DNA from: a virus
Strand: one strand, 5' to 3'
Length of the DNA: 25,822 bases
Virus record (IMG/VR): IMGVR_UViG_3300035698_008243
Location: 1 to 25,822 of that record
Position 1 is the first letter of the stretch. Each line of letters begins with the position of its first letter. Made by a program: the position numbers and the translations under genes. Below are positions 1-24,435 of this stretch, piece after piece. The notes under the pieces are model-generated. The model had not been told where the DNA came from. It saw only the letters and a list, made by a program, of their open reading frames with translations, and ran no database searches.

Positions 1-2892
1 ACGTTTGAGATTTTCTCCGCCTAAGCGAGTCATCCAATCCTTATCATGTTGTGTAAAATCCTGAGCACGAACGACAAACGGTTCAAAGGGAGGTGGTTTA
101 GGATGCGTTGCAACCAGTCCTACTCCGTTACTCCTCAGTTCCTTAGATACCTTCGGCGTAATTCGTGTCCCTATACTATAATGTAAATAGGGTTTCTCTA
201 GATATAAATTACTTGCACTTGTGACTGATTTCAACTTAGAACCCTCTCTAGGTTGCCATCTGGATGCTAAATAATCATAATCCACAACGTCACCTACCAT
301 ATGGCCATTGTAACCCTCGGGATCATTTATCTTAATTTTGGATATGAAACTACGGGCAAAGAGTTCCAGATTGCGCCTGTTAGTACCTGCTCCATTCTTC
401 TTTAATATTTTATGATACTGTTCCATGAAGTAACGTCTGCCACTGCCTATACCTTTATACTTTACAATCTCTGAAGGGTTGGGTACTCCGTTGCTAAGGA
501 CATCACCTGCTTCTACATTATCGCCTATCTTTACTGCTGTGTGGAGTTCTCGTGGAATATGATACTGCTTACCGCTGACCATGATGTATTTACCACCCTG
601 AGGGGCGTCTTGTATCTTTGCCACCTTACCATCAGCTTCTGATAATATTGCACCACCTACAAACTCTTTAGGGACTTGTACAAATTGATTTACTTCTTTG
701 AAACCTGTTAGACCTACTTCCTCTTCGTCTTTACCGCCTACTCCGCCTATGTGCTTCGAACCAAGACCGGATTGTGTTAGTGCCTCTACAAAGGAACGTA
801 CAGCATTGATGCCCACAGCCTCGCCTATATCAGGTAAGGTACCTTTCTCTCTTACACCTGTGCACTGTTGGCATACGCCTTCTGGTGCTTCACATGTTAA
901 AGGGCTACGTACTGTTACTTTCTTGTCGGTCATAAGGGGTAAGTGTTCTGCTTGTATAATTGTACCGGCTTTAAGGGTACCGACAGGCTGCAGTAGTATA
1001 CTGCCTACATTGTCAGAGTCGTCACCTTCTACTTTAAGGCCTTGTGTAACTCCGCAGTCGGGCATAGTTACTATATTACGATGGGCTACGTTTGTTAATT
1101 GTTTGCTTAAATAGCCTGACTCAGCTGTACTGAATTGTGTATCGGAGTTAGATACTACCATTCCATTAGCTAGTACAAATAGATGATCAGGGTGGTTCAC
1201 TGATAAATCATACGTATTTATTTTATAGGAGTCTGATTTACCTGTATACCCGAAAACAAGACTATCGTCCCTGTTATTAGGGGTATGCTTACTAAGTAGT
1301 TCTCTAAATTCATCTGATTTTCTTCCATACGCCAGTAGTTTATTAAATTTATAAATAGAAGACTCATTAGTTACTCTAAGGGTGTACATATCAAGTCTGT
1401 GTATTATCTCTTTTCCACTCTTATTAAAGGATCTGGTCTTTGAAAGTTTAACAGGGCTTACAGTTGTTGTGTAGATGCCAAACCTGGTTTGTAACAGTTC
1501 TTTTAGTTGGTTCAATAATATTTCTGAAGACATCGACCAGCCTACACCTGGTAAGTTAGATGTATTACTACCTTTGCGGCACCAACCGTCCGACTCATAT
1601 AACCCATGTATCAAATTAGCTATATCAGCATTTGACCATCTCTTACTCTCCTCTGGTATAAACTTAGTATGGGAATGTGTGCCCAGTAATCCAAAGGTAT
1701 CAAGCCATCTTTTTATAGGGTTTCTGTGTTTTGCTTGGTCTCTAATCCCTTTTCCAATTACTACGTACTCTAAGGAGGGCTCTCCGGACGTTCTATTCCT
1801 CTTTATATGTTTAAGCTGAACATTGTTTAGATCCTTGTTAAGCTTCTCTATTAGATCAACATCTATTGAAGATAACGTAACACTATATTTCTCGCTTAAA
1901 TGTCCATCGCCTAATAATAAGCCCAATAAACGAGCATACGGCTGTGAGGTTTCTGCCTTACATTGATAGGTGCCGGCCGGTGTCATGCCAAAACAACGCC
2001 ATGCCTGGCTGAGAGGTAGCTTAGAAGGGATTCTTAGATGAGGTGTTGCCTGTCCATTCTTAATGACAGAGAGGACTTTATGGTTTTCTGTAGCTGTTAG
2101 TGTTACAAGATTATCCATCCTTCCTACCCTGAACGTGTAATCATTAACTTTTCGTTCCCCATTATCAAAAGTGTCGATAACCTCTACCGGAAAAGTATTT
2201 CCTTCAGTATCGGCTCCTATTACCCTCTCACCTTTGGTTATGTCTTTTATAGCTTTAACGGAGAAATCAGCCATTCTAACCAATGTGCTTCCTGCGAGGC
2301 ACATGCCCTTTCTGGAGGATTGAGCACCAAGCCAATAAGGTAAAGGAGATACACCACTACCATAGGAGTCCAGTCCTGGGAATGGTATTGTCTTGCCTGT
2401 AGAATCTGCCATAAGCATATCACCGAAGACAGTCTGCATAAGCTGTGTCTTATTCCCTCTGGAGCCACTTTCTATTTGTCTGGCCATAGAGTTGTTACGG
2501 GCCAAGAGATCCCTATATACTGTTTCGGATAAGTTCTTGGAGGCTTTATTGGTTACCTTCGTAATCTCATCAAGCTTCTGCTCAGATGTAAGGCCTGTGC
2601 TATTTGTTATAAGGTGTATTCTTTGCTTGAGTTCTTGCTTCTTATTCCTGATGGAGGCAGGGACTGTTAAATCTTTGAGACTAATACTAGCTTCACGGCC
2701 ATATGTAGTTGCTACATTACGACCTATGTTATTAAGTTTTTGGAGGGTGTCGTTATACTTACCTGGATCTTTCTTAGCAAGATCAGTCATAAGATCACCG
2801 ATCCGCTTACCATCTATAGCCTCTTCGGCATAAGAACGATAAGCAGCAGGTAAAGCATCTTTAACTAGTTCTTTGCCTACTGTCGTGATCAT
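1..2892 (-). CDS. RNA polymerase beta-prime subunit, C-terminal part, with intein (partial at left edge)
   Basis: This gene encodes the second half of a bacterial-type beta-prime subunit. The frame is open from the ATG at 2892 to the window edge (964 codons), so the C-terminus lies outside. Residues 1-60 match the E. coli region that begins at TTVGRAI (here ITTVGKELV). SGSRGNKTQL matches SGARGSAAQI. The bridge helix reads SSRKGM, then an intein (198-582), then SDTQFSTAESGYLSKQL. The second zinc site is intact: C613, C667, C674 and C677, with E. coli spacing between the last three. The trigger helix/loop follows (GEAVGINAVRSF, His714, IGG). The NADFDGD catalytic loop is absent here because it lies in the gene at 4502-11239, so the two products must assemble. 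The start follows the preceding gene (stop at 2895) directly. Homology is read by eye from remembered E. coli sequence but is dense and collinear. Confidence 0.93.
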   Translation of the reverse strand, partial: MITTVGKELVKDALPAAYRSYAEEAIDGKRIGDLMTDLAKKDPGKYNDTLQKLNNIGRNVATTYGREASISLKDLTVPASIRNKKQELKQRIHLITNSTGLTSEQKLDEITKVTNKASKNLSETVYRDLLARNNSMARQIESGSRGNKTQLMQTVFGDMLMADSTGKTIPFPGLDSYGSGVSPLPYWLGAQSSRKGMCLAGSTLVRMADFSVKAIKDITKGERVIGADTEGNTFPVEVIDTFDNGERKVNDYTFRVGRMDNLVTLTATENHKVLSVIKNGQATPHLRIPSKLPLSQAWRCFGMTPAGTYQCKAETSQPYARLLGLLLGDGHLSEKYSVTLSSIDVDLIEKLNKDLNNVQLKHIKRNRTSGEPSLEYVVIGKGIRDQAKHRNPIKRWLDTFGLLGTHSHTKFIPEESKRWSNADIANLIHGLYESDGWCRKGSNTSNLPGVGWSMSSEILLNQLKELLQTRFGIYTTTVSPVKLSKTRSFNKSGKEIIHRLDMYTLRVTNESSIYKFNKLLAYGRKSDEFRELLSKHTPNNRDDSLVFGYTGKSDSYKINTYDLSVNHPDHLFVLANGMVVSNSDTQFSTAESGYLSKQLTNVAHRNIVTMPDCGVTQGLKVEGDDSDNVGSILLQPVGTLKAGTIIQAEHLPLMTDKKVTVRSPLTCEAPEGVCQQCTGVREKGTLPDIGEAVGINAVRSFVEALTQSGLGSKHIGGVGGKDEEEVGLTGFKEVNQFVQVPKEFVGGAILSEADGKVAKIQDAPQGGKYIMVSGKQYHIPRELHTAVKIGDNVEAGDVLSNGVPNPSEIVKYKGIGSGRRYFMEQYHKILKKNGAGTNRRNLELFARSFISKIKINDPEGYNGHMVGDVVDYDYLASRWQPREGSKLKSVTSASNLYLEKPYLHYSIGTRITPKVSKELRSNGVGLVATHPKPPPFEPFVVRAQDFTQHDKDWMTRLGGENLKR
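1147..2301 (-). mobile_element. Intein 3 with LAGLIDADG domain, in the beta-prime bridge helix
   Basis: A 385-residue intein occupies residues 198-582 of the beta-prime C-terminal protein. It starts with Cys198 (CLAGSTLVRM, block A). It has a TENH block B motif (LVTLTATENHKVL) and two LAGLIDADG-type motifs (ARLLGLLLGDGHLS and ANLIHGLYESDGWCR), each with an acidic residue. It ends with NTYDLSVN...GMVVSN followed by Ser583 of the extein. The flanking exteins join as SSRKGM/SDTQFSTAESGYL, matching E. coli ARKGL/ADTALKTANSGYL, so the insertion is inside the bridge helix. The residue before the terminal Asn is Ser rather than the usual His. Both endonuclease acidic positions are present, so homing activity is plausible. 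Confidence 0.92.
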
Positions 2893-2894
2893 GT

Positions 2895-3692
2895 TTATTC
2901 AGGGGGTAGTTTTGAAAGACGTTTATGCCTTGCCTGGCCTCTGTACTCATTGATGCCGATTTGTGCACCTATACCCATTAGTGCAAACAAAGCGGCCTTC
3001 TTCGCTCCTCCCTGGAGGTTTTTATAGATACTAGCACCATTAATGCTACCTTTACTGCCACCTTTCACGTACTTACCGGCGTTAGCACCCATTTGTAGAT
3101 TACCAGGTTTAAGATTGGGTTTAGAGAAACTAGGCATCTTGAATTTTTTAAAGTTAGGCATCTTGAAGAGTTTAGGTACCTTTTTTAAGGCCCCAGGTAT
3201 CTTGGTTACAGCCCCGGGCACCTTGTTTAAAGATCCACTACTTAACATTTGGGCAGCTACGCCTGTTCCGGCTCCTAATGCTGCCGCACTTGGAGTGCTT
3301 TCTAGTAAACCACCTTCCCCTAAGTTCCAGCTTCTATTCATAAGCTCTGTCCCTGCTCCTTGTTCGCGCGCTGCAGAGTGTTCTCTGATTCTACGAGCGT
3401 TCAAAGCCATTACTCCAAGTAAAGATCCGCCTGCTAGGCCTGCGATGCCGCCGCCTGCTATCGCGCCGACATTATCCATACCACCTGTTACAGCGCCTAG
3501 ACCTGCGCCGAGTGCTGCACCTCCGCCACCATAGAGAAGCATAAACTTAATAATCTCACCCTTGCTAAGCTCACGTGTTACAGGAGCAGCACCTACTGGT
3601 GCTGGGGCGTCCCCTTCAGCTGCTTCTTTCTGTAGCTTGGTCACTTGTATATTGGCTAGTTTATGTAATTCATCTCTAAGTTTCTGGCTCAT
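2895..3692 (-). CDS. Glycine-zipper membrane protein with basic KxP repeats (unknown function)
   Basis: This 265-residue protein matches no family I recognise. It lies between the two polymerase genes; its ATG overlaps the previous stop by 4 bases (ATGA) and the beta-prime C-terminal gene follows within 3 bases. The N-terminus carries two short motifs of the type shared across this cluster (HKLAN near residue 12, QKEAAEG near 23). Residues about 49-97 form two Gly/Ala-rich hydrophobic segments, probably a glycine-zipper membrane hairpin. Residues about 157-198 are a run of Lys-hydrophobic-Pro units (KVPG, KIPG, KVPK, KMPN, KMPS, KPNL), giving a strongly basic, proline-spaced region. A last hydrophobic stretch (ALFALMGIGAQIG) precedes a basic tail. 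A virion-internal or membrane-inserting role is inference from composition and position only. Confidence 0.85.
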   Translation of the reverse strand: MSQKLRDELHKLANIQVTKLQKEAAEGDAPAPVGAAPVTRELSKGEIIKFMLLYGGGGAALGAGLGAVTGGMDNVGAIAGGGIAGLAGGSLLGVMALNARRIREHSAAREQGAGTELMNRSWNLGEGGLLESTPSAAALGAGTGVAAQMLSSGSLNKVPGAVTKIPGALKKVPKLFKMPNFKKFKMPSFSKPNLKPGNLQMGANAGKYVKGGSKGSINGASIYKNLQGGAKKAALFALMGIGAQIGINEYRGQARHKRLSKLPPE

Positions 3693-4426
3693 CTCTGTTT
3701 CTCCTTTAAAGAGCTAACTAGGCTAGCAATAGTGTTAGACTTGGCTGCTGCTTGTACAGGCATTCCTGGAGGCATAGGTGGAGCTGCTCCTTCTGGGGGC
3801 ATTCCCATTCCTGTGCTCTGTAGTAATGCTGAGATTTCTTCAGGGGATCCTGGAGGCATTGGTGCGCCCTCTAATTCAGGAGGCATCATACCTGTATCAG
3901 CTGGAGTCGGTTCTCCGCCCACGAGGGCCGAAAGTGACGTTTCCAACTCTGTTAATTTGTCCATGATCTCTGCATTGGTTGCACGACGTGGTTTTTCAGC
4001 GTCGCCTGCTTTGGCGCCTGCTACTTCTTCCATCAGTGCTTTAAGATCATCCATACTTACTTTAACGACATCGTCACCTTCTTCTTCCGGGGGCATTGGA
4101 GGTGCTCCGCCCAGCATAGCTGGGTCCATCGGCATTCCTGTTGCTGGGTCTATTGGCATTCCTGTTGCTGGGTCTATTGGAGGCATTCCGCCCATCATAG
4201 CTGGATCCATTGGAGGGGCTCCGCCCATAGCTGCTGGGTCCATTGGTGGCATTGGAGGTGCTCCACCCATCATAGCTGGGTCCATTGGAGGTGCTCCGCC
4301 CATCATAGCTGGGTCCATTGGAGGTGCTCCGCCGGCTGCTGCCGCTTGTGCTTCTGGTGTGAGGGGTACGAAGGCTTCTTTTTTGAGGCTTTCTCGCGCT
4401 CCTTTAAGCAGTTTTCTATCAATCAT
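3689..4426 (-). CDS. Met/Pro/Gly-rich repeat protein (unknown function)
   Basis: This 245-residue protein of unknown function sits directly after the beta/beta-prime fusion gene. The start has a good ribosome site (CAGGAG, 7 bases upstream of the ATG). After an N-terminal basic helix with the motif LKKEAF (residues 15-19), residues 32-113 are near-identical copies of GGAPPMDPAMM and variants (PIDPATGM). An acidic middle region (about 114-145, EEEGDD...MDDLKALMEEV) and a predicted helix (ATNAEIMDKLTELETSLSAL) follow, then another Met/Pro/Gly-rich stretch and a basic C-terminal helix. Similar Met/Pro/Gly-rich sequence occurs in the tail of the portal at 14718-16589. Low-complexity composition makes homology unreliable. 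A scaffold-like or disordered linker role is possible but not shown. Confidence 0.82.
   Translation of the reverse strand: MIDRKLLKGARESLKKEAFVPLTPEAQAAAAGGAPPMDPAMMGGAPPMDPAMMGGAPPMPPMDPAAMGGAPPMDPAMMGGMPPIDPATGMPIDPATGMPMDPAMLGGAPPMPPEEEGDDVVKVSMDDLKALMEEVAGAKAGDAEKPRRATNAEIMDKLTELETSLSALVGGEPTPADTGMMPPELEGAPMPPGSPEEISALLQSTGMGMPPEGAAPPMPPGMPVQAAAKSNTIASLVSSLKEKQR
4088..4333 (-). repeat. In-frame minisatellite coding for PPMDPAMMGGA-type repeats
   Basis: Tandem units of about 33 bases (shorter 21-base variants in the middle) encode GGAPPMDPAMM and PIDPATGM repeats, residues 32-113 of the gene at 3689-4426. The units are nearly identical at DNA level (recurring core GGTGCTCCGCCCATCATAG on the plus strand), suggesting recent expansion by slippage or recombination. 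Because the repeats are in frame, copy number could vary without breaking the gene. Confidence 0.9.
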
Positions 4427-4452
4427 TGTATTCTCCTGTTTATATTTGAAAT

Positions 4453-4468
4453 GTCTAACGCGTTAGAC
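4453..4468. repeat. 16-bp perfect palindrome, copy 1 (GTCTAACGCGTTAGAC)
   Basis: This perfect palindrome lies in the 75-base gap between the polymerase fusion gene (ends 4502) and the next gene (starts 4426). On the plus strand it is followed by TTTTT, so it looks like a small hairpin plus T-run pointing against the local minus-strand genes. An identical copy with TTTT on the opposite strand lies at 22107-22122. It could be an operator-like protein binding site or an antisense terminator; the 6-bp stem with CGCG loop is weak for a terminator. Confidence 0.75.
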
Positions 4469-4501
4469 TTTTTAGATACATCCTTAAATATACGTGGGTA
4501 T

Positions 4502-7500
4502 TTAGCTTTTGTCCACTATACGAATAGGATCATCTACGTCTATCTCGCCTTTCCTGTAAGCTTCTTTGGCGTCTGCCTTACTCTTAAAAACTTTAACAGG
4601 TGGACCTGGTTTTTGTCTTGTTGCTATGTTAAGGCCCTGCAAATATTCCCTCATTGGTTTATAATGAGCTTTAAAGTCTTTTATATCCAAAAGGTTCTGT
4701 TCGGGCATCATCTTGCTCGCAACTTCTTGTGCCGCCTTACGTGATACAGGTACGTGGAAGTTTGCTGCATCTCCATCAAAATCCATATTGAATGGTCCTA
4801 CAATACTAGGACTAACCTGTATAGTGCTACCCTTTGTCAGTACTGGCCAGAAACCCATTAAGCTAAACTTATGGAGTGAAGGTGCTCTGTTCAGAATTAC
4901 AGGACGTTCCTCAACTGCCTTTTGTAGTAGAGAATAAGCCGCTGGGTGTTTCTCAGCTGTCATCTTAACTGCGTCTGTTGCTTTATATCCACCCTGTATG
5001 AGTGCTTTAACAACAAATGGTTCATAGATGTTCCAAGCCTGTTCCTCTGGGAGTCCGATCTGATTAAGCTTTAATGCTGGGTTAGGTGTGACTGTTCCTC
5101 TGCCCACCATGTCAACAGCAGATCCTACAACACGGCGTTGGAAGGCACCATACTTAGGGGAACTCTTACCGAATACCCACTTAAGTAATCCACCTACATT
5201 CTTCTGCTGTAGCTTAATTCCATCTGGGTCGTGTAATCCTGTTATTGCTTTAAAGCCTCTATAGATCTGAGCTCTAGCATCTCCCAGCATATCATCAGGT
5301 AGTTGTTCTCTGGCGTCTTTAAAATCTTTGTTAGCATCTATCAGTGCTTTATAGAGGTAGTTAGCATCAGCAACCATTGTCATACCATCTACAGATGTAA
5401 TAGGTCTGTACTTAGGTGGTAGGACTGGTATTCTATCAAGCATGAAGTCTTTAGGGTGCATCTTCTGCAGTTTGATGCTGGCTAATGCTCTATACTTCTT
5501 AATCGCATTGTCCCTACGCGTACCCGTGCTACGCTTTATATCTTCCATGGCATACTTGACCTCTCTGGTAAGGTCGATCTTACCTAGGGCTTTCTTTAAT
5601 GCGTTACCCCCTGTATCACCATTCAACTCTTTACGGCCCTCTGCTACTGCTTCGAAATCTTTTAATGTCATATCTAAGGATCTGCGTAAGCTATCAGCCA
5701 TTACAGGATTAGGGATAGGTTCATCTAATGGGATATAACCCCACTGGTTACCGTCCGGTCCAAATACATCTTTACCGAACAAGCCACCATCAATTGGTCT
5801 GTATGTGTTAGTCTCAAATGTATCAGCTGACTTAACCTGTCGACCCTGGCTGAGACGGCCTACATCATCATTGTTCATGCCGAAGATATCAATACTGCTT
5901 TTGCCTTTACGTACATTAATACCAGCACCCTTTAGGTGTTCAAAGAACTTGCTATGTACTAAAGGTGTACCAGGCATAGTAGGAGTCTTACCAAATTTAA
6001 ATGCACGCCAGAACTCATCGTTGGCCTGCCCTTTAACTATCTTAGCATCTTTAAGGACTTCCATAACAGAGTGACCTATTAAAGCTGAGGTTTCTAAGCC
6101 ACCAAGCCGTTTGCTACCTTCATAGCCACCTGACGCTGGGACGTTATCCATTGTATATCCAGCTGTACCACGGCCTGACTCTTTAGATTCAGCTGTATGT
6201 TTTAATTTATAATAGTAAGCCATCCCGTTAAATACCTTAGGAATAGTCTTACCAGTTTCAGGATCAAGCAGATCATCTGTATCTGATAGTCCGTTTTCTT
6301 TTAGATCAGCCATCGCCTTCTCCGCCGCATCTTCAGTCATAAAGGCCGGTAGATCTATGGCTTTACCTCTTTTCTGGGCTATCTTACCATAGGCAACTTC
6401 AATTAACTGGGCCGGATTAGTACGGGAAACGACGCTTAGAGGACTCATTAATATTTCGAATGGTTTACCCTTCTTATCTAAAGGCATTTGGTTATCAGGT
6501 ACAACCTCTGCTACTACTCCCTTTGAACCATATCTATTTGAATTACCGGACCACACTGTTTTACCATTACGTCTCGTATAGACTATGTGATTAAAAGGCA
6601 TCTCAGGGCAATAGACCTTTCCTGAATAGTTTTCATCCCAGTATTCCGTCTGACCCTTCTGTGTCTTGGCATGCCCGTGGTTGATCGTGGGTTGGTTTTT
6701 ATATCGGTATGTGCTTACCGTGTAGGATGGTTTAGCAAAACAATTTCGTCCGCATATAATGCGTGGTCCACCTTTATCTGTAAGTCTTACAGTGGCGGAC
6801 ATTCCCATATGAAGACATAATCTTTGCCAATCCCCTGCGAGACGGCTGGAGACTGTAGTTATTCCGTGTCCTGCTTGGGTTCTGTGCCCGTCGCCGAACA
6901 TGAACCACTCATAAAAAATGGCCAAAAGATCAGGTGACAGGGTCAGTATGTTATCAGGTATGTACTTTTCGGGTGCTTTTCCAAATTGTTTGAGATAAGA
7001 AGCCCAGTGCTTACTATACACTCTTATTTTTTCAGAATGAGACCCTTCACACCACTTCACACCTAATCTGGTAAAGGCCTTTTGCAGTATATATTTATTA
7101 TTACCTTTTGTTTGGCTTATATCAAAACCATAAGAACCACTACTAGGCTGCCACACTGAATTGCCGTCGGATAGGTAGATGCCCATTATAGTCAGATAAG
7201 CCTCTATCGAAACCTCAGGCCCCTCAACAAGTTTCATGGTTCTACCTACACCCATAACAACGGGTGGTAATTTGAACGTATCCTGGTGTATGCCTTTCCA
7301 CTTACCCGTTTTTTCCAGCCTGTACTTTTTACCATATAAATCAGAGGCCTTATGAAGACCATATTCCCACCTTGCTTCTTTACCCTTTCTAAGGGCTGCA
7401 TAATGTTTATGCTCCTCAGTAACACACAGGCTGACCTGTGTTGTTTCTACTACATGCATACTACCAGAGTGGTCGTAGCTATGCAATGCTGAAGGGTTGA

Positions 7501-10500
7501 TGTATTGTATGTTTTTTGTATCAGGATCTAGGGTGGCCAATTCATCAGCCAGTGTTACAGTCGTAATATTCTTCCACCCCTTTGAGGTTAGCAGATCTGT
7601 ATCCTCAGAGTAACACATCTTATCGCCTACCTTCATAGGTACATTGGCTCTGGAGAAGACTGTGTGATTCTCGCGACCTGTAACTACATCTGTTATAACT
7701 CCCGGGTAATCATGTTCCCACTTCTCGGAGACATCTGTAAATGTACGACGACCCGCGGTACCGGGGGATGGCTGGTTCTCTCTGATACCTAGTATAAGTG
7801 GATCACCTTTGTCAACAACTGAACCCGTTTTAATCATACCGTTAGGATCCATCTTATCAAATTGATCTGCCGTATACTTGCCCGGGAACATGTTAACATA
7901 TCGTTTGGTATCTGTGGATAGATGTTTTTCTTTAGGTAGCTTTGTATTGTACATATACTCGGATGTTAATCTCTTAGCTGCTGCCTCTGATATTACGATA
8001 GCATCCTCATAGTTAGAGCCTTTAAAGTTCATGAAAGCTGTACGAAGATTCAAACCACCCGCGAACACACCATCATTAGCTGTGTAGTTGCTTGAGGCTA
8101 GTGCTTGACCTTTCTTAAACGTATCACCAGCTTTAACTTCAGCATGGCTCCTTAGGTAACCCTTCTGGTTGGCCGGGAAGTTATCATAAAGCTCATGCTC
8201 TGCTTGTTCCCCGTCTATATATTCAACGATTATTTTATCTTTACGTACTTGTTTTACGACACCTGCTTTAGGTGCCTGGACCGCTCCTGTGTATTTACCT
8301 GCTAATCTTTCTACAGAACCGGTACCTGTACCATCTGCGCTACGTGTTAGTGCTGCTTCTCTATTAACTAAGGGTAAAGCCTGTGTAGCGTATTTACTAT
8401 TATGTACAAATATACCTTGACCTACTGAGAATGTGTGGTCATTGAGATCCAGATCATATGTAATGGCTACAGGGTCTACGTCCTTTATACCAACCACGCT
8501 ATCCCACCTTATCTCACTATCTAACCAGATGCATTCCTCGGAGGATATGCGCTCTTGTAATGATTGTTTCGTATGTTGATTAACATATGCGCGATGTCTA
8601 AAGTGCTCCTTACGGGTAGATCGCTGTAGTACGCTGGCATGAAGATCTTTATACATAGGTATGTAATCTATATTCTTTTTACCGGACCACAGTTTCAGCG
8701 TAGACATCCTCTTAGCTTTTTCGTTATGAGTAAGCACCGGGACTTTATGTAAATGCTGGGACCTTACTTCGAGTAAGTAGATAGGTTTATCGAGGGCTGT
8801 GGTTTCTCTAACCACTGTATCAATCTGTAGTGTGCTGAATAGGTTCGACAAACCCTCTATAAGGTCATAACTTCTCACACCTGTAATTAGCCTGGCGTAG
8901 CCTCTTCTATCCATCACAGTACCATCTCCGTCAAAAAATCCAGCTATAAAACCTTCCCTACACCCTAAGGGGGCCTGCAGGATCAGTCCCGCAACCTTCT
9001 TCTTGTAAGAACCCGTTTCCAAATTAGCATGTAACCAACGTGCAAACCCTGAGTGATTGACCACTACCTTCTTATGAGGGTCGGCACCATTGCGTCTTAT
9101 TTTATACTTAAGATCCAAGTCATCTAATACAGCACATAATCTCTTCTGCAATTCCGGTCTATCAACTGCCCAGCTTGTTGTACCATATCCATGGCCCCTA
9201 TCTCCTTGTAACCAGCCCTCTGCAGTATATAAACCCAGCATGTATCCCACGCCCTCTGTGAGCTCCATCTCAAAGCCCGAAAAACTATTATGCTTGGCCC
9301 CCTTCCCTATGGTCACAGATGTGATGCCTTCTTCCATGGGGAAGTCTAACCAACCTTCTCTGGGGATGGGTGTACCCATAACTAGATTCTGAGCTGTGAT
9401 CTTTTCTAAAGTTCCTTGTTCACTCATAGTCACCCATTTATGATTAACAGTTGTAGTTAGTTTTCTACCACTTTTTAATTTAACTTCTAACATATCTATT
9501 TTATTATAATTAGGCACCAATCGCTCAACCCCTCTCCAGGTTGTCTTTCCAGTAGTCTGATCAACTGAGTGCGCTTGGTCTCCTTGGTGCCATTCGTAAT
9601 TCTCTATATGACCATAAAATATACTATTATCAGCTTTTTTAATTATAATATTAGTATCAGGAGCCAGGCACCCCATCAATAATCTCATACCTTTAACACC
9701 GCCCTTGAATGGTACCATGTTAGAACCCAATGAGAACATGTTATTATCATCACTAAGATAGTAGTCCACATCTTTACGGGGTGCTATATGTACACCACGC
9801 TCTCCACCCACTAGAGGGATATAAGGGTCTTTAGTATCCATGTACTCCGAAGTAGCTATATTGGCTGTTGCTGCTGTCTTAGAGTCTACCCATTCTTTCT
9901 TACCTGTGCGTGGGTTGAATAACTGTGTATATAGTAGGCCATCATGTCCTTTACGTGTATTCTGTGTCATGAACATTTGTAGTCCCACGGCGAGAGACTC
10001 TGGTGATCTGATCGGGTCTATGTATCCTTTAAAGGAGTTCTGTACCAATCTCATCTCATCAGATGCTAAACGTTGGCTGCTCAAGCCTCCCTCGCCTAGA
10101 CGTGTAATACGTGTAGCTGAGTCAATAGCATCAAAAGGGCTTGACCCGTCAATGTACTGTGCTAATTTTGATTCATTAAAGACTCCGTCAACATGTGCAT
10201 TAAGTGCACCAGATGACATAAAGTCCAGGTTCTTTTTGTTTGTAGCCTTCCATAAGAGGGCACGGCCTAGTCGGCCACCATCTTTGACAATACGTTCTGC
10301 AAAAATCTCAGCAGGTCCATATACTTTCTGAAACTGCATGCTATCCCTATTATCTGCCTTTGATGTGCCTTTAGCTAATCTTAATAGTTTATCCGATGTA
10401 CCTAACAGCATATCAGGTGATACTCTGTCATAAGGCTTGCCAAGAGTGGCTTCTGTGGATACAGGGTCTAGTCGCATCGTTCCAAACGATTCTAAGAGCG

Positions 10501-11239
10501 CTTTAGCATCATCCGGACTCAGAGTCACGTAATTGGCTTTCGTGCCGTCAGAGGCTTCCTTGGGTAGTAGCTTTTGAAGATTACGTGTTACCATAGTTCC
10601 GGAACTTGCCAGCCTGTTGGTATTGAGCAATTCAGTGCCCCACATCTCCTCTATTTTCTTATCAGGGATACCCATGGATCTGAGAATAGGATAAAGCCTT
10701 GCATTGACATTACCCTTACGAATATTAAATACACCAGTCTCTGGGTCGATCTCCATCTTAAACTGGGAACCTGTACCTTGTTCTACATTAACATGGGCCT
10801 CATATAATCCATTAGCCTTTACCCGCGAGTAAACACCCGGGTTTAGGCGCAGCACGTGTCCAATAGTCATCTCATGGCCATTACGGATATAAGTACCACG
10901 TGGAGTAATATAAGGAACATTAAGTAAAGTAACTTTCTTAGTCTGGCTTACTGGTTTGCCTGTGAGTTTATCGGTAAGTGTCCATCTACCCTTAAGTCTA
11001 CGACCTAGGCTTCTACCTTTTAGGATTGCTTCTTTCTGCTCCTTTAGGGAATAACTATCCGGGCCATCGTAATCCACTTCATCTACAGCTAGAGTATAAT
11101 CATCATTCTCTAAAGGGAAACGTTGCGATACAGCAGCTTTGACATTATCCATTGTGGCGTTTCTTATGCCATCAAAATCTAAAATGTCATACCTGTACGT
11201 AGGTTGCTTCTTTAATTCCGATAAAAATGTTTGGGTCAT
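4502..11239 (-). CDS. RNA polymerase beta subunit fused to beta-prime N-terminal part, with two inteins
   Basis: The 2245-residue product becomes about 1463 residues after removal of two inteins (524-947 and 1209-1566). The beta part (to about residue 1787, roughly 1000 residues without inteins) shows VPYITPRGTYIRNGHE, the ESLAVGL segment matching ETPEGPNIGL, GSNMVPF...MRLLMG, VGDKM/SNRYGSKGVV containing both catalytic lysines (K1207, K1573), and a GGLETSALIGHSVMEVL end region. Beta-prime begins without a gap (YRPIDGGLFGKDVFGP) but lacks the N-terminal zinc ribbon expected after FGP. It continues through RPVILNRAPSLHK to the catalytic NMDFDGD loop (2151-2157) and stops shortly after, at about E. 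coli residue 530. The start overlaps the upstream stop (ATGA). Beta is short because it lacks the lineage-specific insertions of E. coli. The fusion plus the split of beta-prime is the most notable feature of the window. Confidence 0.95.
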   Translation of the reverse strand: MTQTFLSELKKQPTYRYDILDFDGIRNATMDNVKAAVSQRFPLENDDYTLAVDEVDYDGPDSYSLKEQKEAILKGRSLGRRLKGRWTLTDKLTGKPVSQTKKVTLLNVPYITPRGTYIRNGHEMTIGHVLRLNPGVYSRVKANGLYEAHVNVEQGTGSQFKMEIDPETGVFNIRKGNVNARLYPILRSMGIPDKKIEEMWGTELLNTNRLASSGTMVTRNLQKLLPKEASDGTKANYVTLSPDDAKALLESFGTMRLDPVSTEATLGKPYDRVSPDMLLGTSDKLLRLAKGTSKADNRDSMQFQKVYGPAEIFAERIVKDGGRLGRALLWKATNKKNLDFMSSGALNAHVDGVFNESKLAQYIDGSSPFDAIDSATRITRLGEGGLSSQRLASDEMRLVQNSFKGYIDPIRSPESLAVGLQMFMTQNTRKGHDGLLYTQLFNPRTGKKEWVDSKTAATANIATSEYMDTKDPYIPLVGGERGVHIAPRKDVDYYLSDDNNMFSLGSNMVPFKGGVKGMRLLMGCLAPDTNIIIKKADNSIFYGHIENYEWHQGDQAHSVDQTTGKTTWRGVERLVPNYNKIDMLEVKLKSGRKLTTTVNHKWVTMSEQGTLEKITAQNLVMGTPIPREGWLDFPMEEGITSVTIGKGAKHNSFSGFEMELTEGVGYMLGLYTAEGWLQGDRGHGYGTTSWAVDRPELQKRLCAVLDDLDLKYKIRRNGADPHKKVVVNHSGFARWLHANLETGSYKKKVAGLILQAPLGCREGFIAGFFDGDGTVMDRRGYARLITGVRSYDLIEGLSNLFSTLQIDTVVRETTALDKPIYLLEVRSQHLHKVPVLTHNEKAKRMSTLKLWSGKKNIDYIPMYKDLHASVLQRSTRKEHFRHRAYVNQHTKQSLQERISSEECIWLDSEIRWDSVVGIKDVDPVAITYDLDLNDHTFSVGQGIFVHNSKYATQALPLVNREAALTRSADGTGTGSVERLAGKYTGAVQAPKAGVVKQVRKDKIIVEYIDGEQAEHELYDNFPANQKGYLRSHAEVKAGDTFKKGQALASSNYTANDGVFAGGLNLRTAFMNFKGSNYEDAIVISEAAAKRLTSEYMYNTKLPKEKHLSTDTKRYVNMFPGKYTADQFDKMDPNGMIKTGSVVDKGDPLILGIRENQPSPGTAGRRTFTDVSEKWEHDYPGVITDVVTGRENHTVFSRANVPMKVGDKMCYSEDTDLLTSKGWKNITTVTLADELATLDPDTKNIQYINPSALHSYDHSGSMHVVETTQVSLCVTEEHKHYAALRKGKEARWEYGLHKASDLYGKKYRLEKTGKWKGIHQDTFKLPPVVMGVGRTMKLVEGPEVSIEAYLTIMGIYLSDGNSVWQPSSGSYGFDISQTKGNNKYILQKAFTRLGVKWCEGSHSEKIRVYSKHWASYLKQFGKAPEKYIPDNILTLSPDLLAIFYEWFMFGDGHRTQAGHGITTVSSRLAGDWQRLCLHMGMSATVRLTDKGGPRIICGRNCFAKPSYTVSTYRYKNQPTINHGHAKTQKGQTEYWDENYSGKVYCPEMPFNHIVYTRRNGKTVWSGNSNRYGSKGVVAEVVPDNQMPLDKKGKPFEILMSPLSVVSRTNPAQLIEVAYGKIAQKRGKAIDLPAFMTEDAAEKAMADLKENGLSDTDDLLDPETGKTIPKVFNGMAYYYKLKHTAESKESGRGTAGYTMDNVPASGGYEGSKRLGGLETSALIGHSVMEVLKDAKIVKGQANDEFWRAFKFGKTPTMPGTPLVHSKFFEHLKGAGINVRKGKSSIDIFGMNNDDVGRLSQGRQVKSADTFETNTYRPIDGGLFGKDVFGPDGNQWGYIPLDEPIPNPVMADSLRRSLDMTLKDFEAVAEGRKELNGDTGGNALKKALGKIDLTREVKYAMEDIKRSTGTRRDNAIKKYRALASIKLQKMHPKDFMLDRIPVLPPKYRPITSVDGMTMVADANYLYKALIDANKDFKDAREQLPDDMLGDARAQIYRGFKAITGLHDPDGIKLQQKNVGGLLKWVFGKSSPKYGAFQRRVVGSAVDMVGRGTVTPNPALKLNQIGLPEEQAWNIYEPFVVKALIQGGYKATDAVKMTAEKHPAAYSLLQKAVEERPVILNRAPSLHKFSLMGFWPVLTKGSTIQVSPSIVGPFNMDFDGDAANFHVPVSRKAAQEVASKMMPEQNLLDIKDFKAHYKPMREYLQGLNIATRQKPGPPVKVFKSKADAKEAYRKGEIDVDDPIRIVDKS
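6542..7615 (-). mobile_element. Intein 2 with LAGLIDADG domain, in the beta VGDKM/GNKG site
   Basis: A 358-residue intein spans residues 1209-1566 of the fusion protein. It starts CYSEDTDLLTSKGW and has a TEEH block B motif. Two LAGLIDADG-like motifs follow (YLTIMGIYLSDGNS and YEWFMFGDGHRT). It ends VYCPEMPFNHIVYTRRNGK...WSGN before Ser1567. The exteins join as KVGDKM/SNRYGSKGV, equivalent to E. coli KVGDKM/AGRHGNKGV, so it separates two lysines that line the active centre. The residue before the final Asn is Gly, not His; the RRNGK...W-x-GN ending is an alternative C-terminus I associate with some phage inteins. Confidence 0.93.
8399..9670 (-). mobile_element. Intein 1 with LAGLIDADG domain, in beta after the LMG motif
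   Basis: A 424-residue intein spans residues 524-947 of the fusion protein. It starts CLAPDTNIIIKK (block A). It has TVNH in block B (KLTTTVNHKWVTM) and two LAGLIDADG motifs (GYMLGLYTAEGW and EGFIAGFFDGDGTV). It ends ITYDLDLNDHTFSVGQGIFVHN with the canonical His-Asn pair before Ser948. The exteins rejoin as MRLLMG/SKYATQALPLV, matching E. coli RALMG/ANMQRQAVPTL. All splicing and endonuclease landmarks are present. Confidence 0.94.
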
Positions 11240-12324: not shown

Positions 12325-12656
12325 TTTTCAGGTTCTCCCAGTGGACTGTACCAGTAGTCTATCCATCGTACTAAAGCTACCCAATGCTTTTCATCAGGTA
12401 TGTACTCCATTTTCTCATAGGATTGTTGTGCGTGGCCATCCTGTATTTTTTGACATACTTCTTCATATTCTTTAAGCTGTTTCTCATCAGACAGCTCAAA
12501 CCGTTTGACGTATAATACCGTGTTCAACTTCATGAAGTCTTCGGGCTTATCCGTCTTCTTCAGATTGATTGGAACACCTCTATATGGTATTCCCTCGAAG
12601 TCCCCTGTTATCTTGATAGATGTGGGTTCTTCTACCTCCTTAATTGTGTCACTCAT
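12321..12656 (-). CDS. Small soluble hypothetical protein
   Basis: This 111-residue protein has no membrane segment and no family I recognise. The first half is beta-like (SIKITGDFEGIPYRGVPINL). Next comes a charged helix (LSDEKQLKEYEEVCQKIQDG), then an aromatic-rich C-terminus (HWVALVRWIDYWYSPLGEPEK). Both ends overlap neighbours by ATGA, so it belongs to the same operon as the membrane proteins on each side. Unlike them it lacks the K-[E/Q]-A motif and looks cytoplasmic, so it may be a partner or assembly factor; that is a guess. Confidence 0.8.
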   Translation of the reverse strand: MSDTIKEVEEPTSIKITGDFEGIPYRGVPINLKKTDKPEDFMKLNTVLYVKRFELSDEKQLKEYEEVCQKIQDGHAQQSYEKMEYIPDEKHWVALVRWIDYWYSPLGEPEK

Positions 12657-12988
12657 ATATGTAAACTCTTAGGTTTGGGAGCCCCAGGTAAACTCTGTTC
12701 TTTTAACTGAGAGAGCTGTTCCTCGCGATTAGACCTCGACAGTTCACTCTGCAATTTATCCCGAAGGAAAGCTTTTTGTACGTTCTTAACATCTCTCTTA
12801 CCTGGAGAGGTGAGTTTAGACGCGACATAACCTCCGGTTCCTCCTGCTAGTGCAGCTAGAGCGAGCCCCATGGACATAGCCTGTCCTGAGAGTGCTTCTC
12901 CAGATGTATAAGCTATATATAAGGCTGCTAATGGATTAACCGCCTCTTTATGCATATAGTTACAATATTGTTCTATTGGTTTTGACAT
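12653..12988 (-). CDS. Small membrane protein with KEA motif (unknown function)
   Basis: This 111-residue protein carries HKEAV at residues 13-17. An Ala/Gly-rich hydrophobic region follows (about 17-57), probably one or two membrane passes with Gly-x3-Gly spacing near 41-53. The C-terminal half is charged and helical (KRDVKNVQKAFLRDKLQSEL). A CAGGAG ribosome site lies 8 bases upstream of the ATG, and the previous gene stops immediately before. The motif-then-hydrophobic layout repeats in adjacent genes and suggests a shared route, for example packaging or membrane insertion; this is inference. Confidence 0.82.
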   Translation of the reverse strand: MSKPIEQYCNYMHKEAVNPLAALYIAYTSGEALSGQAMSMGLALAALAGGTGGYVASKLTSPGKRDVKNVQKAFLRDKLQSELSRSNREEQLSQLKEQSLPGAPKPKSLHI

Positions 12989-13828
12989 TTAAATTACTCC
13001 TGTATTCTTTAACATACCTGCTAAGGCACCTGTTGCTGACAGTGTTTGGGTGACTGCCTGTGGTGCACTTAATACTTTACCCATTGTATTGGCTAGAAGA
13101 TAACCTGCGCCTGCTCCGAACCCGGCCCGTAGTGCGCCTCGTGCGAGATCCCCTGTGGAGATCATACCTGATTTACCTTCCCCAGCATTCTCAAATGGTT
13201 TGCTGGCATTGATCTTCTCTTTACCATTAAGATACTTGTCTCCCCATATAAGGTCAAGCGAGTAATCAACAGGAATACCAGGATGGTCGTGTAAAGGATT
13301 CATATAAGCTGCATTGTAGCCTGCTTCTTTAGCCATCTGTTGCTTCTGAAGATAGTTAGGCGGTATCTTTGGGATAGCGTCCTTCCTCTTATTAAACTCG
13401 TCTGGAGACATCGTACCATCGTCAGGCCACTTGTGATCCCAGGTTAGAAGGCTCTTAAGCCCTCCACTGTCTGGCTGCACTGACTTAGGTACATAATTGT
13501 GTGCTAAAGACCCACCTGCTGCTAGTAAACCTAAGATAGTAGCTAGGCGACCTCTGAAGTCTCCTGCATTGTTTACCTTAGCTAATTCAGCTTGGATCTG
13601 TTCAGGTGACTGCCTTAGTAGTCTACCTTTTAAATTTGTGAGCCCTCTAGCCATTGGTCTAGCCATGAAGTAAGCAGGCAAAGCAACAGCTGCTCCTGTG
13701 GCAAGTGCGGACCCTAGTGGATTCCCAGTCATCTTGCGCCATGTCTTAGGAATAGATGCTAAGTCGAATTTACCGACTTGGTCCAACATATCATCCACAA
13801 ATGCTTCTTTTGCTAACCTATCATCCAT
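12989..13828 (-). CDS. Multi-pass membrane protein with KEAF motif (unknown function)
   Basis: This 279-residue protein begins MDDRLAKEAFVDDML, so the shared motif is at residues 7-10; AKEAGY occurs again internally near residue 167. Hydrophobic segments are seen at about 38-58, 93-113, 231-249 and near the C-terminus (TLSATGALAGML), with the middle segment polar and Pro-rich (KIPPNYLQKQQ). The start overlaps the preceding stop as TAATG. No enzyme motif was found. Composition resembles the other glycine/alanine-rich membrane proteins in this cluster. Confidence 0.85.
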   Translation of the reverse strand: MDDRLAKEAFVDDMLDQVGKFDLASIPKTWRKMTGNPLGSALATGAAVALPAYFMARPMARGLTNLKGRLLRQSPEQIQAELAKVNNAGDFRGRLATILGLLAAGGSLAHNYVPKSVQPDSGGLKSLLTWDHKWPDDGTMSPDEFNKRKDAIPKIPPNYLQKQQMAKEAGYNAAYMNPLHDHPGIPVDYSLDLIWGDKYLNGKEKINASKPFENAGEGKSGMISTGDLARGALRAGFGAGAGYLLANTMGKVLSAPQAVTQTLSATGALAGMLKNTGVI

Positions 13829-14717: not shown

Positions 14718-16589
14718 TTACATAGCACCGCCGCCTTGTGACGCTTGTTGCTTAGCTTGGGCTAGGGCGTTTGATTTAACACCCTGCTCCATGTCTGATA
14801 TCATTTGCTTAACTTGAGCGTGTAATGTAGGATTGCTCTTCTTGAGATTAGTGAGCTCATTACGTCTAGTTGTTGGGTCCATAGACATAATCTGCTGAGC
14901 TGTCTGCTCAGCTTGTGCCATCATATCATCCATAGAAGGTGTACCACCGCCCATAGGAGCTGCTCCTGCTGGAGGCATAGGTGCTGCGCCTACTGGTCCG
15001 CCTGCAGGTGGTGCTCCACCTTCTGCGCCCGGAGGCATACCCATATTCTGAGCTGCTGCGTCTGGAGGAATAGTAGCCATCTGCTCCGTGAGCATCATAG
15101 TCTGTTCATCCTTCTTCTGTTCTTCGCGCATTAACTCGTTCATAATACGGTCTTCTTCGATGATCTGTTCGCGTTCACGGTCCATATCAATACCGAATGC
15201 TTTAAGGGCTGTACGGTTAGAGATGACTTTAGCGCTAGCTAGATTAAGCTTAACTTGTTTACCCATTTCGTCTTCAACAATACTAGTACGTTCAAGTTTT
15301 CCGGTAATGTTACCTTCCCATCCCATGATACGACCGCACTGGACTAGAAACCAACCTAACCAGTCGTCAAGCATAGTGGTATAATGCGTCCAAGTCTTTT
15401 CGAACATACGAAGAGAGATTGGAGGACCACTGCCTCCCATAGTGATAGACCCACGATAGAACTCTTGTGGAACACCCATACTAGTTAACAGTACGTCTTG
15501 TGCTCTGTCAATAAGTTCAACAGGTACCAGTGATTTAGCTTCTCCACCGATTGCCTGATATTCTAGAGGGAATGGTAATGTATGCCAAGAAGTCGGGTCC
15601 TGGCGATGCTGTTTGACCATACGTCTTACAGCTCCCATAAAGTTACCCATGTTATTAGATAACATAGGATCTGTTTTTGAAGCGCCCCCAGTTGTCGGAG
15701 GAGTCAGAACTCTGAATGGTACGATGTAATCCATCGCAATCGCCTCATTAAATCTCTCAAGTATTTGGAGGTGAACAACTTGTGAGAAGTTAGACATAAA
15801 CAGAGGTAAGCCCCAACCCTTCAACATAGGGACAAGATTTGCTGCAGTATTACATTTTAGATGATAAAATGTTTCCTTATTAAACTTAAATGGCCTGTCG
15901 TTCTTAACAGACTCTATAAGTTCCCACGGCATAGAACGTATAAACACAGGGTCACCGTCCTTGATACGTCTTTTCTCTTCCGCCGGGATCTCATAGTAGT
16001 AATCGGATTCACCAGTGATAGAGCAATGTTTAATAGAAACATACTGAGGTGCCCATCTAATGATTTTAATTTTTGAATGCTTACTGACACCGCTGGCATC
16101 AATGCGTCTAAAGGTTTGTGCTTTCATTTTACACTGAGGACAGTCCCCTACAAAGCTATAATCTTTCCACTTGTAGTCTTCATCTAACTTCAGTGTTTCA
16201 AGAGGTCGGGATAGTCCACAATCTTTATTAGGACATACCAAGGACCGCCTTAACGGTACTGATACTGATGTGAAGCTGTTACCATAGGCGATTACATCAT
16301 CACCTACCTGCCCAAGCTGGTCCAGTATATTCATCTGTTCCATTAGGAAGGTTTGGTATTTCTTACGTGTGTCATGGCTTAGGTCGTCCCCTGTCAGGTC
16401 TATGTCGTTAAGGAAGTAACGAACACATTTTTTAATGGCCTGAGAATAGATCCCATTACGTAACCATAGCCTGTCTGCCCAATAGAATACTTCCTGTACT
16501 GTGGATGGGTAGATAATGTTCGAGAAGCTCATGAACGGGTCAGGGAAGTCAATGATCCTGCTGTTCAACGGGAATTTAGTTGAGTACAT
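14718..16589 (-). CDS. Phage portal protein
   Basis: I read this 623-residue protein as the dodecameric portal that forms the DNA channel at the capsid vertex. Support comes from its length, the N-terminal region with a YWADRLWLRNGIYSQAIK helix, the central beta-rich region, and the long-helix region around AQDVLLTSMGVPQEFYRG...SLRMFEKTWTHYTTMLDDWL, with a highly charged Glu/Arg helix after it. An inserted zinc-ribbon-like motif (CPNKDCG at about 119-125, CPQC at about 150-153) is present. The last 100 residues are Met/Pro/Gly/Ala-rich, like the protein at 3689-4426. I chose the ATG at 16589; a GTG at 16616 in the same frame would add 9 residues. Either way the start lies inside the 3' end of the preceding gene. 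Confidence 0.8.
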   Translation of the reverse strand: MYSTKFPLNSRIIDFPDPFMSFSNIIYPSTVQEVFYWADRLWLRNGIYSQAIKKCVRYFLNDIDLTGDDLSHDTRKKYQTFLMEQMNILDQLGQVGDDVIAYGNSFTSVSVPLRRSLVCPNKDCGLSRPLETLKLDEDYKWKDYSFVGDCPQCKMKAQTFRRIDASGVSKHSKIKIIRWAPQYVSIKHCSITGESDYYYEIPAEEKRRIKDGDPVFIRSMPWELIESVKNDRPFKFNKETFYHLKCNTAANLVPMLKGWGLPLFMSNFSQVVHLQILERFNEAIAMDYIVPFRVLTPPTTGGASKTDPMLSNNMGNFMGAVRRMVKQHRQDPTSWHTLPFPLEYQAIGGEAKSLVPVELIDRAQDVLLTSMGVPQEFYRGSITMGGSGPPISLRMFEKTWTHYTTMLDDWLGWFLVQCGRIMGWEGNITGKLERTSIVEDEMGKQVKLNLASAKVISNRTALKAFGIDMDREREQIIEEDRIMNELMREEQKKDEQTMMLTEQMATIPPDAAAQNMGMPPGAEGGAPPAGGPVGAAPMPPAGAAPMGGGTPSMDDMMAQAEQTAQQIMSMDPTTRRNELTNLKKSNPTLHAQVKQMISDMEQGVKSNALAQAKQQASQGGGAM

Positions 16590-16773
16590 CTTTGTTGTGT
16601 CTCCATAATTGTTCACTCATCTCCGCGGCAGCTTTAAGACCGAAGTCCGAGCCACTTGATGCAGTTTTCTCATGGGAGTGCGCATTGCACAGTGGGGGAC
16701 TTGAGTCCTCTTCCGCCTCGTGCGAACAACCAGAGATTGAACAGATAATACGTTGTTTACTTATTTTTTCCAT
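16576..16773 (-). CDS. Small Cys/His protein, possible zinc finger
   Basis: This 65-residue protein has a CSISGCSHEAE...PPLCNAHSHE layout: Cys11-x4-Cys16-x-His, then Cys-x2-His about 12 residues later. This is compatible with binding one zinc ion. The C-terminal half is a short helix (KAAAEMSEQLWRHN). The 3' end overlaps the portal start by about 14 bases (more if the GTG start is used). No clear ribosome site precedes the ATG. A role in portal expression or as a small DNA-binding protein is speculation. Confidence 0.65.
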   Translation of the reverse strand: MEKISKQRIICSISGCSHEAEEDSSPPLCNAHSHEKTASSGSDFGLKAAAEMSEQLWRHNKDVLN

Positions 16774-24021: not shown

Positions 24022-24435
24022 ATGAATATAGGGTATTTAAGTGGTCCGATGACTGATATTGAAGAGTACAATCATCCGGAGTTTCGTAGAGTAGGAGGCA
24101 TACTGGTTAGGTCCGGTCTGCTTAGGAAGCTTATTAACCCATCAGATATGGATGAAGGTGAACAGGCCTGGAGTTATTACCTTAAAAGGGACCTATGTAT
24201 GATTCTCAATGGTAACGTGGATACTATTATCCTATTACCAGGTTGGCAGGCAAGTAAGGGCGCACGCATTGAAGTACGTGTAGCCATAGAAGTATTAGAC
24301 GCAGAGGTGTACACTTATAGAGACACGGAGGAGGGTTTCTCGTTAACACCACTGCATGTGTATCCAGAGACGATGATCAAGTGTAAAGCCGCTAGATCTA
24401 AAACAATCAACGTACCTTTGGAGGTAGCAGTATGA
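24022..24435 (+). CDS. DUF4406-like (nucleoside 2-deoxyribosyltransferase-related) protein
   Basis: This 137-residue protein begins IGYLSGPMTD...YNHPEFRRVGGILVRSG and continues NPSDMD...WSYYLKRDLCMIL and VDTIILLPGWQASKGARIEVRVAIEV. This is the pattern of a phage family related to nucleoside 2-deoxyribosyltransferases (GPMTG...N-P-F, LPGW-x-S-GA-x-E). The SKGA-x-IE element would carry the catalytic Glu in true transferases. The activity in phages is not established; nucleotide modification or salvage is possible. AGGAGG lies about 5 bases before the ATG. Confidence 0.75.
   Translation: MNIGYLSGPMTDIEEYNHPEFRRVGGILVRSGLLRKLINPSDMDEGEQAWSYYLKRDLCMILNGNVDTIILLPGWQASKGARIEVRVAIEVLDAEVYTYRDTEEGFSLTPLHVYPETMIKCKAARSKTINVPLEVAV

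What the first reader, a model, noticed from the sequence alone, without database searches (positions are those of the whole stretch)
1..11239. Phage RNA polymerase with beta fused to beta-prime N-part and beta-prime split after the catalytic loop
One gene carries complete beta plus beta-prime through NMDFDGD; a second gene resumes collinearly at the E. coli TTVGRAI region. The split falls at about E. coli residues 530-560, so the catalytic loop and the bridge helix/trigger loop are on different proteins. Multisubunit phage polymerases of the phiKZ and AR9 type are known to be split, but I do not know of this combined beta-beta-prime fusion plus split. Homology is read directly from motifs; novelty is my inference.
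Basis: partly seen in the sequence, partly recalled or inferred. Interest (0 to 1): 0.85.

Follow-up and report, generated by a model that had tools for sequence, protein, structure and literature searches.

The report
Phage RNA polymerase, fused then split
A group of large bacterial viruses carries an RNA-copying enzyme whose two big parts are joined in one gene while the last part is cut off into a second gene; it is a real, apparently undescribed variant of a known enzyme and is also present in cultured phages.

Summary
Observation confirmed. One minus-strand ORF (4502-11239, 2245 aa) carries beta plus beta' through the catalytic NMDFDGD; a second (1-2892, cut by the window edge; 992 aa in a longer contig) resumes at the TTVGR region. 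The break lies at E. coli beta' ~559/570. Three inteins (424, 358, 385 aa) sit in catalytic motifs.

The arrangement is not unique. Salmonella phage Arash and Vibrio phage D69 share the fusion and break without inteins. Of 58 IMG/VR loci (4 from the window's own phage), 23 have the fusion reaching past the DPBB, 27 have a form in which beta' is cut again before the DPBB, and 8 are unclassified. No ORF in the 58 joins beta'N to beta'C (both parts were seen in 29). Trees nest the three-gene form among two-gene forms. In 17 records (15 possibly fragments) I found no alpha or omega, one Pfam-detectable RNAP locus each, and sigma70 region 2 in 12.

Beta-beta' fusion (Helicobacteraceae, Wolbachia) and the post-DPBB break (phiKZ-type phages, cyanobacteria) are each known; my searches found no description of the combination. 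New variant of a known kind. Splicing, assembly and activity are inferred.

The parts
4502..11239 (-). Fused beta-beta'N gene, 2245 aa with two inteins; extein 1463 aa
5891..11239 (-). beta part (with inteins A and B); the joint to beta' is approximate
   Evidence: HMM boundaries; coordinates checked
4502..5890 (-). beta' N-part, ends at about E. coli beta' 559
8399..9670 (-). Intein A, 424 aa, LLMG^C...HN^S, after E. coli beta G682
   Evidence: Pfam Intein_splicing and LAGLIDADG_3
6542..7615 (-). Intein B, 358 aa, GDKM^C...GN^S, between catalytic K1065 and K1073
   Evidence: no Pfam intein hit; same bounds match inteins inside phage thymidylate synthase genes
4769..4789 (-). NMDFDGD catalytic loop of beta'
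   Evidence: DxDxD kept in 22 of 22 phage rows
7619..7621 (-). catalytic Lys (E. coli beta K1065)
   Evidence: 42 of 42 phage rows
6521..6523 (-). catalytic Lys (E. coli beta K1073)
   Evidence: 42 of 42 phage rows
1..2892 (-). beta' C-part gene, cut by the window edge (992 aa in G001 46022-49000); extein 607 aa, starts at about E. coli beta' 570
1147..2301 (-). Intein C, 385 aa, RKGM^C...SN^S, inside the bridge helix (after E. coli beta' L783)
   Evidence: Pfam Hint and LAGLIDADG_3
751..753 (-). trigger-loop His (E. coli beta' H936)
   Evidence: 22 of 22 phage rows
3689..4426 (-). Gene between the two RNAP genes, Pro/Met-rich, unknown
   Evidence: no Pfam or PHROG hit
2895..3692 (-). Gene between the two RNAP genes, Gly-rich, unknown
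   Evidence: no Pfam or PHROG hit
14718..16616 (-). Portal protein gene upstream of the fusion
   Evidence: phrog_2739; same family upstream of the RNAP in 24 of 26 loci tested

Best explanation
This is the core of a phage-encoded bacterial-type RNA polymerase made of two chains. Chain 1 (beta fused to beta'N) brings both double-psi beta-barrels, the two catalytic lysines and the Mg-binding DxDxD loop into one polypeptide. Chain 2 (beta'C) supplies bridge helix, trigger loop and the rest of beta', and is expected to dock where a continuous beta' chain would run. The three inteins must splice out first. The tether probably stands in for the assembly help of alpha and omega, which these phages do not visibly encode; in the lineages that have one, a phage sigma70-type factor may give promoter choice. 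Fusion and post-DPBB break are shared by the whole clade sampled; one branch (type II) later cut the fused chain again in a variable loop of beta'. Shown: architecture, homology, kept catalytic residues, distribution, tree. Inferred: splicing, docking, activity, role of tether and sigma, and the ancestral state.
For: Open frames with strong homology for all three parts. K1065 and K1073 kept in 42 of 42 phage rows; D460, D462, D464, R425 and H936 in 22 of 22. Same fusion and break in Arash and D69 at 32% and 29% identity and in 23 of 58 IMG/VR loci; beta'C seen as a separate gene in 20 of those 23. Model of the L025 beta'C homologue (pLDDT 78.8) matches bacterial beta' at Z 31.0, 458 aligned, rmsd 7.6. 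Alpha 0/17 (two families), omega 0/17, with 13 to 14 of 14 control genomes ringing; sigma70 region 2 in 12/17. Type II is one clade (SH-aLRT 99.4) sister to Arash-like type I, together 100.
Against: No expression, splicing or activity data. Trigger-loop R933 of E. coli is replaced in 22 of 22 phage rows (Gly, Ser, Asn or Cys) and the first zinc ribbon of beta' is absent in 22 of 22, so the enzyme is not bacterial in every catalytic detail. Inteins B and C end in GN and SN, not the usual HN, so splicing is less sure. The window's own lineage shows no sigma70: none in G001, G002, G008, G014, G015. The chain-1 fragment modelled poorly. Root position rests on a long branch to two bacterial sequences.
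Confidence: 0.75

Rival explanations
1. Virion RNA polymerase: the chains are packed in the head and injected with the DNA to transcribe early genes.
For: The genes lie in the head gene cluster, with a portal gene of one family upstream in 24 of 26 loci tested and a major-head-protein hit about 14 kb downstream in G001. Some Arash neighbours are annotated 'structural protein'.
Against: Neither RNAP chain shows the N-terminal K[EKQ]A leader that 14 of 41 ORFs of at least 100 aa in that region of G001 carry. Sigma70 in 12 of 17 records fits a non-virion enzyme, though it may serve host RNAP.
Confidence: 0.3
2. Pseudogene or decaying genes: fusion, split and inteins are stages of decay.
For: Many insertions: three inteins here, others at other sites in L022, L024, L032, L059 and L069, group I introns in L008 and L075. 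L022 has an extra break in the beta' part near its contig end.
Against: Frames are open, insertions in frame with intein ends, catalytic residues kept over about 30% identity, and the beta' break is at the same place in every locus that shows both sides.
Confidence: 0.05
3. The gene breaks are relics of introns or inteins that inserted and were lost, as proposed for phiKZ-type RNAPs (proposal reported in PMC7598289, section 7).
For: Mobile elements are frequent in these genes.
Against: None of the intein or intron sites seen coincides with the post-DPBB break or the type II break; the type II break lies in a variable loop while the inteins sit in conserved motifs. Lost elements leave no trace, so this is weak.
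Confidence: 0.2

Closest known systems
Salmonella phage Arash (OQ632216, gp206 + gp216) and Vibrio phages D69, D181 (D148 by tblastn rows only)
   Same: Same beta-beta'N fusion and same beta' break; portal gene upstream in Arash and D69
   Different: No inteins in Arash or D69; D181 has a group I intron in beta; 29-32% identity (Arash, D69); motif AADYDGD; sigma70 present in Arash and D69
phiKZ/AR9-type jumbo-phage multisubunit RNAPs
   Same: No alpha or omega; beta' broken after the DPBB (PMC7598289, section 7)
   Different: There beta is also broken and is not fused to beta', two RNAPs per phage, no known initiation factor homologues (PMC7598289); here beta is whole and fused
mReC RNAPs (Weinheimer and Aylward 2020, PMC7481178, abstract and passages)
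   Same: Sequence-recognisable phage beta/beta' in Caudovirales from IMG/VR
   Different: Criteria there: beta and beta' hits of at least 800 aa and NADxDGD; no fusion or split is described for mReC in the passages found. Whether this clade falls inside mReC was not tested
Fused rpoBC of Helicobacteraceae and Wolbachia (PMC7483510, passage)
   Same: beta and beta' joined end to end
   Different: Here beta' is broken, so only its N-part is in the fusion
Cyanobacterial RpoC1/RpoC2
   Same: beta' broken after the DPBB, nearby position
   Different: Phage break lies some tens of residues upstream; no fusion to beta there
crAss-like single-chain phage RNAP
   Same: Both barrels on one chain
   Different: There beta and beta' are fused in one protein with no detectable match to beta/beta' profiles (PMC7481178, passage); here bridge helix and trigger loop are on a second chain

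Membership tests
Bacterial-type multisubunit RNAP (beta/beta') | Homology to beta and beta' over both barrels, bridge helix and trigger loop | tested here: met
Bacterial-type multisubunit RNAP (beta/beta') | Catalytic Lys pair, DxDxD, trigger-loop His | tested here: met
   42/42, 42/42, 22/22, 22/22 phage rows
Bacterial-type multisubunit RNAP (beta/beta') | Own alpha and omega subunits | tested here: not met
   0/17 records, 15 of them possibly fragments
phiKZ/AR9-type jumbo-phage RNAP | beta' broken after the DPBB | tested here: met
   window ~559/570 in E. coli numbers; definition from PMC7598289
phiKZ/AR9-type jumbo-phage RNAP | beta broken into two or more chains | tested here: not met
   beta whole and fused
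phiKZ/AR9-type jumbo-phage RNAP | Two RNAPs, virion and non-virion | tested here: inconclusive
   one RNAP locus in 17/17 by PF00623 and PF00562; a strongly diverged second enzyme would be missed
mReC RNAP | NADxDGD motif | tested here: not met
   NMDFDGD in the window, AADYDGD in Arash and D69; L024 and L029 do have NADxDGD
mReC RNAP | Placement in the mReC clade of the RNAP tree | not tested
Fused rpoBC (Helicobacteraceae/Wolbachia) | Whole beta and whole beta' in one chain | tested here: not met
   beta'C is a separate gene
Cyanobacterial-type RpoC1/RpoC2 break | Same break position | tested here: inconclusive
   profile position 1513 of 1523 aligns to RpoC1 551 of 624; RpoC2 residue 12 aligns to beta'C profile position 29: near, not identical
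Inteins | Splicing-domain homology and Cys...Asn^Ser junctions | tested here: met
   junctions for A, B, C; Pfam for A and C, B only by intein-bearing phage genes
Inteins | Actual splicing | not testable with these tools
   B and C lack the usual penultimate His

The most novel reading that the evidence does not exclude
A separate lineage of phage RNA polymerases in which gene boundaries wander through one beta-beta' continuum: fused at the beta/beta' joint, cut after the DPBB, and in one branch cut again before the DPBB. The tether replaces alpha and omega as assembly platform, giving a two-chain RNAP that still reads as bacterial and exists in cultured Salmonella and Vibrio phages. The cuts fall in variable loops, not where inteins and introns sit, which speaks against their being relics of lost introns.
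Probability: 0.5. Interest if true: 0.68.

Novelty: new variant of a known kind. Interest (0 to 1): 0.55.

Why it matters
How alpha-less phage RNAPs are held together is called unknown in the jumbo-phage RNAP review (PMC7598289, passage). This clade offers a natural fusion plus split, close enough in sequence to bacterial RNAP for residue-by-residue comparison and present in phages of Salmonella and Vibrio, so assembly without alpha could be tested directly. It also gives a tree-ordered series of RNAP gene fusion and fission, and an RNAP whose catalytic motifs are repeatedly invaded by inteins.

Tried and rejected
Uniqueness: rejected. Frameshift or assembly error for the break: rejected. Records L009, L010 and L080 sit in the phage collection but hold ordinary bacterial-type rpoB/rpoC, so I judged them contamination and did not count them as phage relatives; L010 and L080 served as outgroup. 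Dropped from the tree (48 sequence sets, 37 in the tree): L009, L048, L069 by hand; L033, L039, L043, L051, L053, L074 for a short beta' N-part; L011 and L012 for little or no beta. Near-duplicate and short loci were not put in at all. Rhizobium phage RHph_Y65 has an unbroken beta'; YerA41 has beta' in two genes and a separate beta; E. coli phage IME392 and two Acinetobacter phages have only distant, separate RNAP genes. The genome-contig scan gave two loci, L090 (Woesearchaeota MAG, distant beta) and L091 (uncultured bacterium MAG, a phage-type beta fragment), and named no host.

The AlphaFold model of the fused fragment was poor (pLDDT 51) and not used. IQ-TREE failed on threads and timed out; FastTree and IQ-TREE -fast with SH-aLRT were used instead. 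L029's place is unsettled (0.30 and 78.6). PHROGs gave no hit for 7 of 9 proteins, one of which was a 32-aa fragment. Rfam found nothing in the window. Literature searches on the fusion/split: (open-licence PMC papers only); intein and fused-rpoBC searches. Seven papers were opened in part; none describes the combination in the parts seen.

Full report
Observation. The window is a 25,822-bp IMG/VR virus record. On its minus strand a 2245-aa ORF (4502-11239) and a second ORF open at the window's first base (1-2892) carry RNAP domains. A 99.992% identical contig (G001, 96,452 bp) completes the second ORF to 992 aa. The two genes are 1609 nt apart, with two other genes between them, 3689-4426 and 2895-3692.

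Inteins. Alignment with intein-free relatives defines A (residues 524-947 of the first protein), B (1209-1566) and C (198-582 of the second). In E. coli numbering they follow beta G682, beta M1066 and beta' L783: B lies between the two catalytic lysines, C inside the bridge helix. A and C have Pfam intein or homing-endonuclease domains; B has none and is recognised by matching, over the same bounds, inteins in phage thymidylate synthase genes and others. A ends in HN, B in GN, C in SN. Exteins are 1463 and 607 aa.

What the exteins are. Profiles of window exteins, Arash and D69 match solved beta at best 1.2e-108, the beta' N-part at 3.4e-69 and the beta' C-part at 8.3e-80. Against E. coli K-12 the first chain ends at beta' ~559 and the second starts at ~570. 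K1065 and K1073 are kept in 42 of 42 aligned phage rows; R425, D460, D462, D464 and H936 in 22 of 22. Against the reading of a fully bacterial enzyme: R933 of the trigger loop is replaced in 22 of 22, and the first zinc ribbon of beta' is absent in 22 of 22; the second zinc site is kept in 20 of 22 (near-duplicates are among these rows). A model of the L025 beta'C homologue (pLDDT 78.8, pTM 0.61) matches bacterial beta' chains at Z up to 31.0 (458 aligned, rmsd 7.6). A model of the fused fragment failed (pLDDT 51).

Distribution. tblastn of the fusion hits 106 of 50,697 phage records; only Arash, D69, D148 and D181 match over about two thirds of the query (66-69%). Arash gp206 (1525 aa) + gp216 (606 aa) and D69 0261 (1527 aa) + 0264 (609 aa) show the same fusion and break, at 32% (fusion) and 29% (C-part) identity to the window. 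In D181 beta is interrupted by a group I intron with a homing endonuclease; D148 was seen only as tblastn rows. A profile-guided IMG/VR scan gave 58 loci. By HMM on ORFs: type I (fusion reaching past the DPBB) 23 of 58, four of them the window's own phage and several others near-duplicates; type II (beta plus about the first 118 profile positions of beta', then a separate DPBB gene) 27 of 58, with the second gene seen in 20 of 27; unclassified 8 of 58, seven cut off within beta and one (L069) needing TAG read as an amino acid. beta'N and beta'C share an ORF in 0 of 58; both parts were seen in 29 (20 type I, 9 type II).

Order of events. In a tree of 37 concatenated sequences type II (17 tips) is one clade (SH-aLRT 99.4), Arash-like type I (Ia) another (100), the two together 100, and window-like type I (Ib) another (100) (same clades in FastTree). 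With two bacterial sequences as root, type I surrounds type II, so the simplest history is a fused, post-DPBB-broken ancestor and one later cut. The later cut falls in a stretch aligned with about E. coli beta' 150-180 that is long in the Ia and type II rows and short in the window, L023, L024, L029 and L032 rows (loose alignment there). The root rests on a long branch.

Mobile elements. Relatives carry inteins at other sites: after beta E565 in L059 (same region in L022), at beta 1266-1271 in L032 and L059, in the beta' N-part of L024, in the trigger loop of L059, and at several sites in L069 including right after MDFDGD (the last two groups judged by eye). None coincides with either gene break. 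A proposal that RNAP splits arose from intron mobility is reported in PMC7598289 (section 7); the sites seen here do not support it for this clade, though lost elements leave no trace.

Partners. In 17 records (15 IMG/VR contigs, Arash, D69): alpha PF01000 0/17 and PF01193 0/17, omega PF01192 0/17; sigma70 region 2 in 12/17; region 4 in 6/17 at E<=0.001, 5 over the cut-off. Five records show neither sigma region: G001, G002, G008, G014 and G015. PF00623 and PF00562 ring at one RNAP locus in each of 17. IMG/VR records may be fragments and a diverged second RNAP would be missed.

Context. A portal gene of one family lies upstream of the RNAP gene in 24 of 26 loci tested, not found in L023 and L024. 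This leaves open whether the enzyme is packed in the virion.

Mechanism. Shown: two open chains that together cover beta and beta' with the key catalytic residues. Inferred: intein splicing, docking of chain 2 at the post-DPBB break, activity without alpha or omega, tether as assembly aid, sigma use where present.

Literature. PMC7598289 (passages and section 7): phiKZ-type RNAPs. PMC7481178 (abstract, outline and passages): mReC. PMC7824862 and PMC13282480 (passages): jumbo phages. PMC10770324 (passages and section 12): single-chain phage RNAPs. PMC1635734 (passages): inteins near the active site of eukaryotic RPB2-type subunits. PMC7483510 (passages): fused genes in Helicobacteraceae and Wolbachia. 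None describes this combination in the parts seen; searches.

Verdict. Real, reproducible and broader than reported: a new variant of phage multisubunit RNAP, each half of whose oddity is known separately.

Noticed in passing
window 3689-4426, 12653-12988, 12989-13828, 13828-14652, 20045-20680; G001 ORFs at 16469, 16946, 18762, 22862, 48990: Many ORFs share an N-terminal leader ending in K[EKQ]A, often after a GYLxGYL-like stretch: 14 of 41 ORFs of at least 100 aa in G001 16-60 kb within their first 45 aa, against 25 of 487 later 45-aa windows of all listed ORFs. Perhaps a capsid-targeting or prohead-protease site. The RNAP chains lack it.
   Followed up: partly
L069 8354-17119 (106,679-bp contig, G016): This relative reads only if TAG is taken as an amino acid: one 2922-aa frame with 45 TAG codons, several inteins by eye, one right after the catalytic MDFDGD. 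Its beta'C match, about 9 kb further on, also has 7 in-frame TAG.
   Followed up: partly
L008 3691-3898 and 7488-7768; L075 11449-11730: Group I introns: in the beta gene of Vibrio phage D181 and of an IMG/VR phage, and a second one in D181 just upstream of the gene in the portal position.
   Followed up: partly
L033-L039, L043-L054, L061-L063, L068, L070-L072, L074 (27 loci): Type II: the fused chain is cut again before the catalytic DPBB, giving a three-gene RNAP where all parts are seen.
   Followed up: yes
window 18157-18717, 22293-23345, 24022-24435: Deoxynucleotide monophosphate kinase, an HNH endonuclease and a DUF4406 / nucleoside 2-deoxyribosyltransferase-like gene.
   Followed up: no
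L009, L010, L080: Records named as phages (MT836236, 'Staphylococcus phage SA 1306 Kay', 'Acinetobacter phage MD-2021a') hold bacterial-type rpoB/rpoC and look like contamination.
   Followed up: partly
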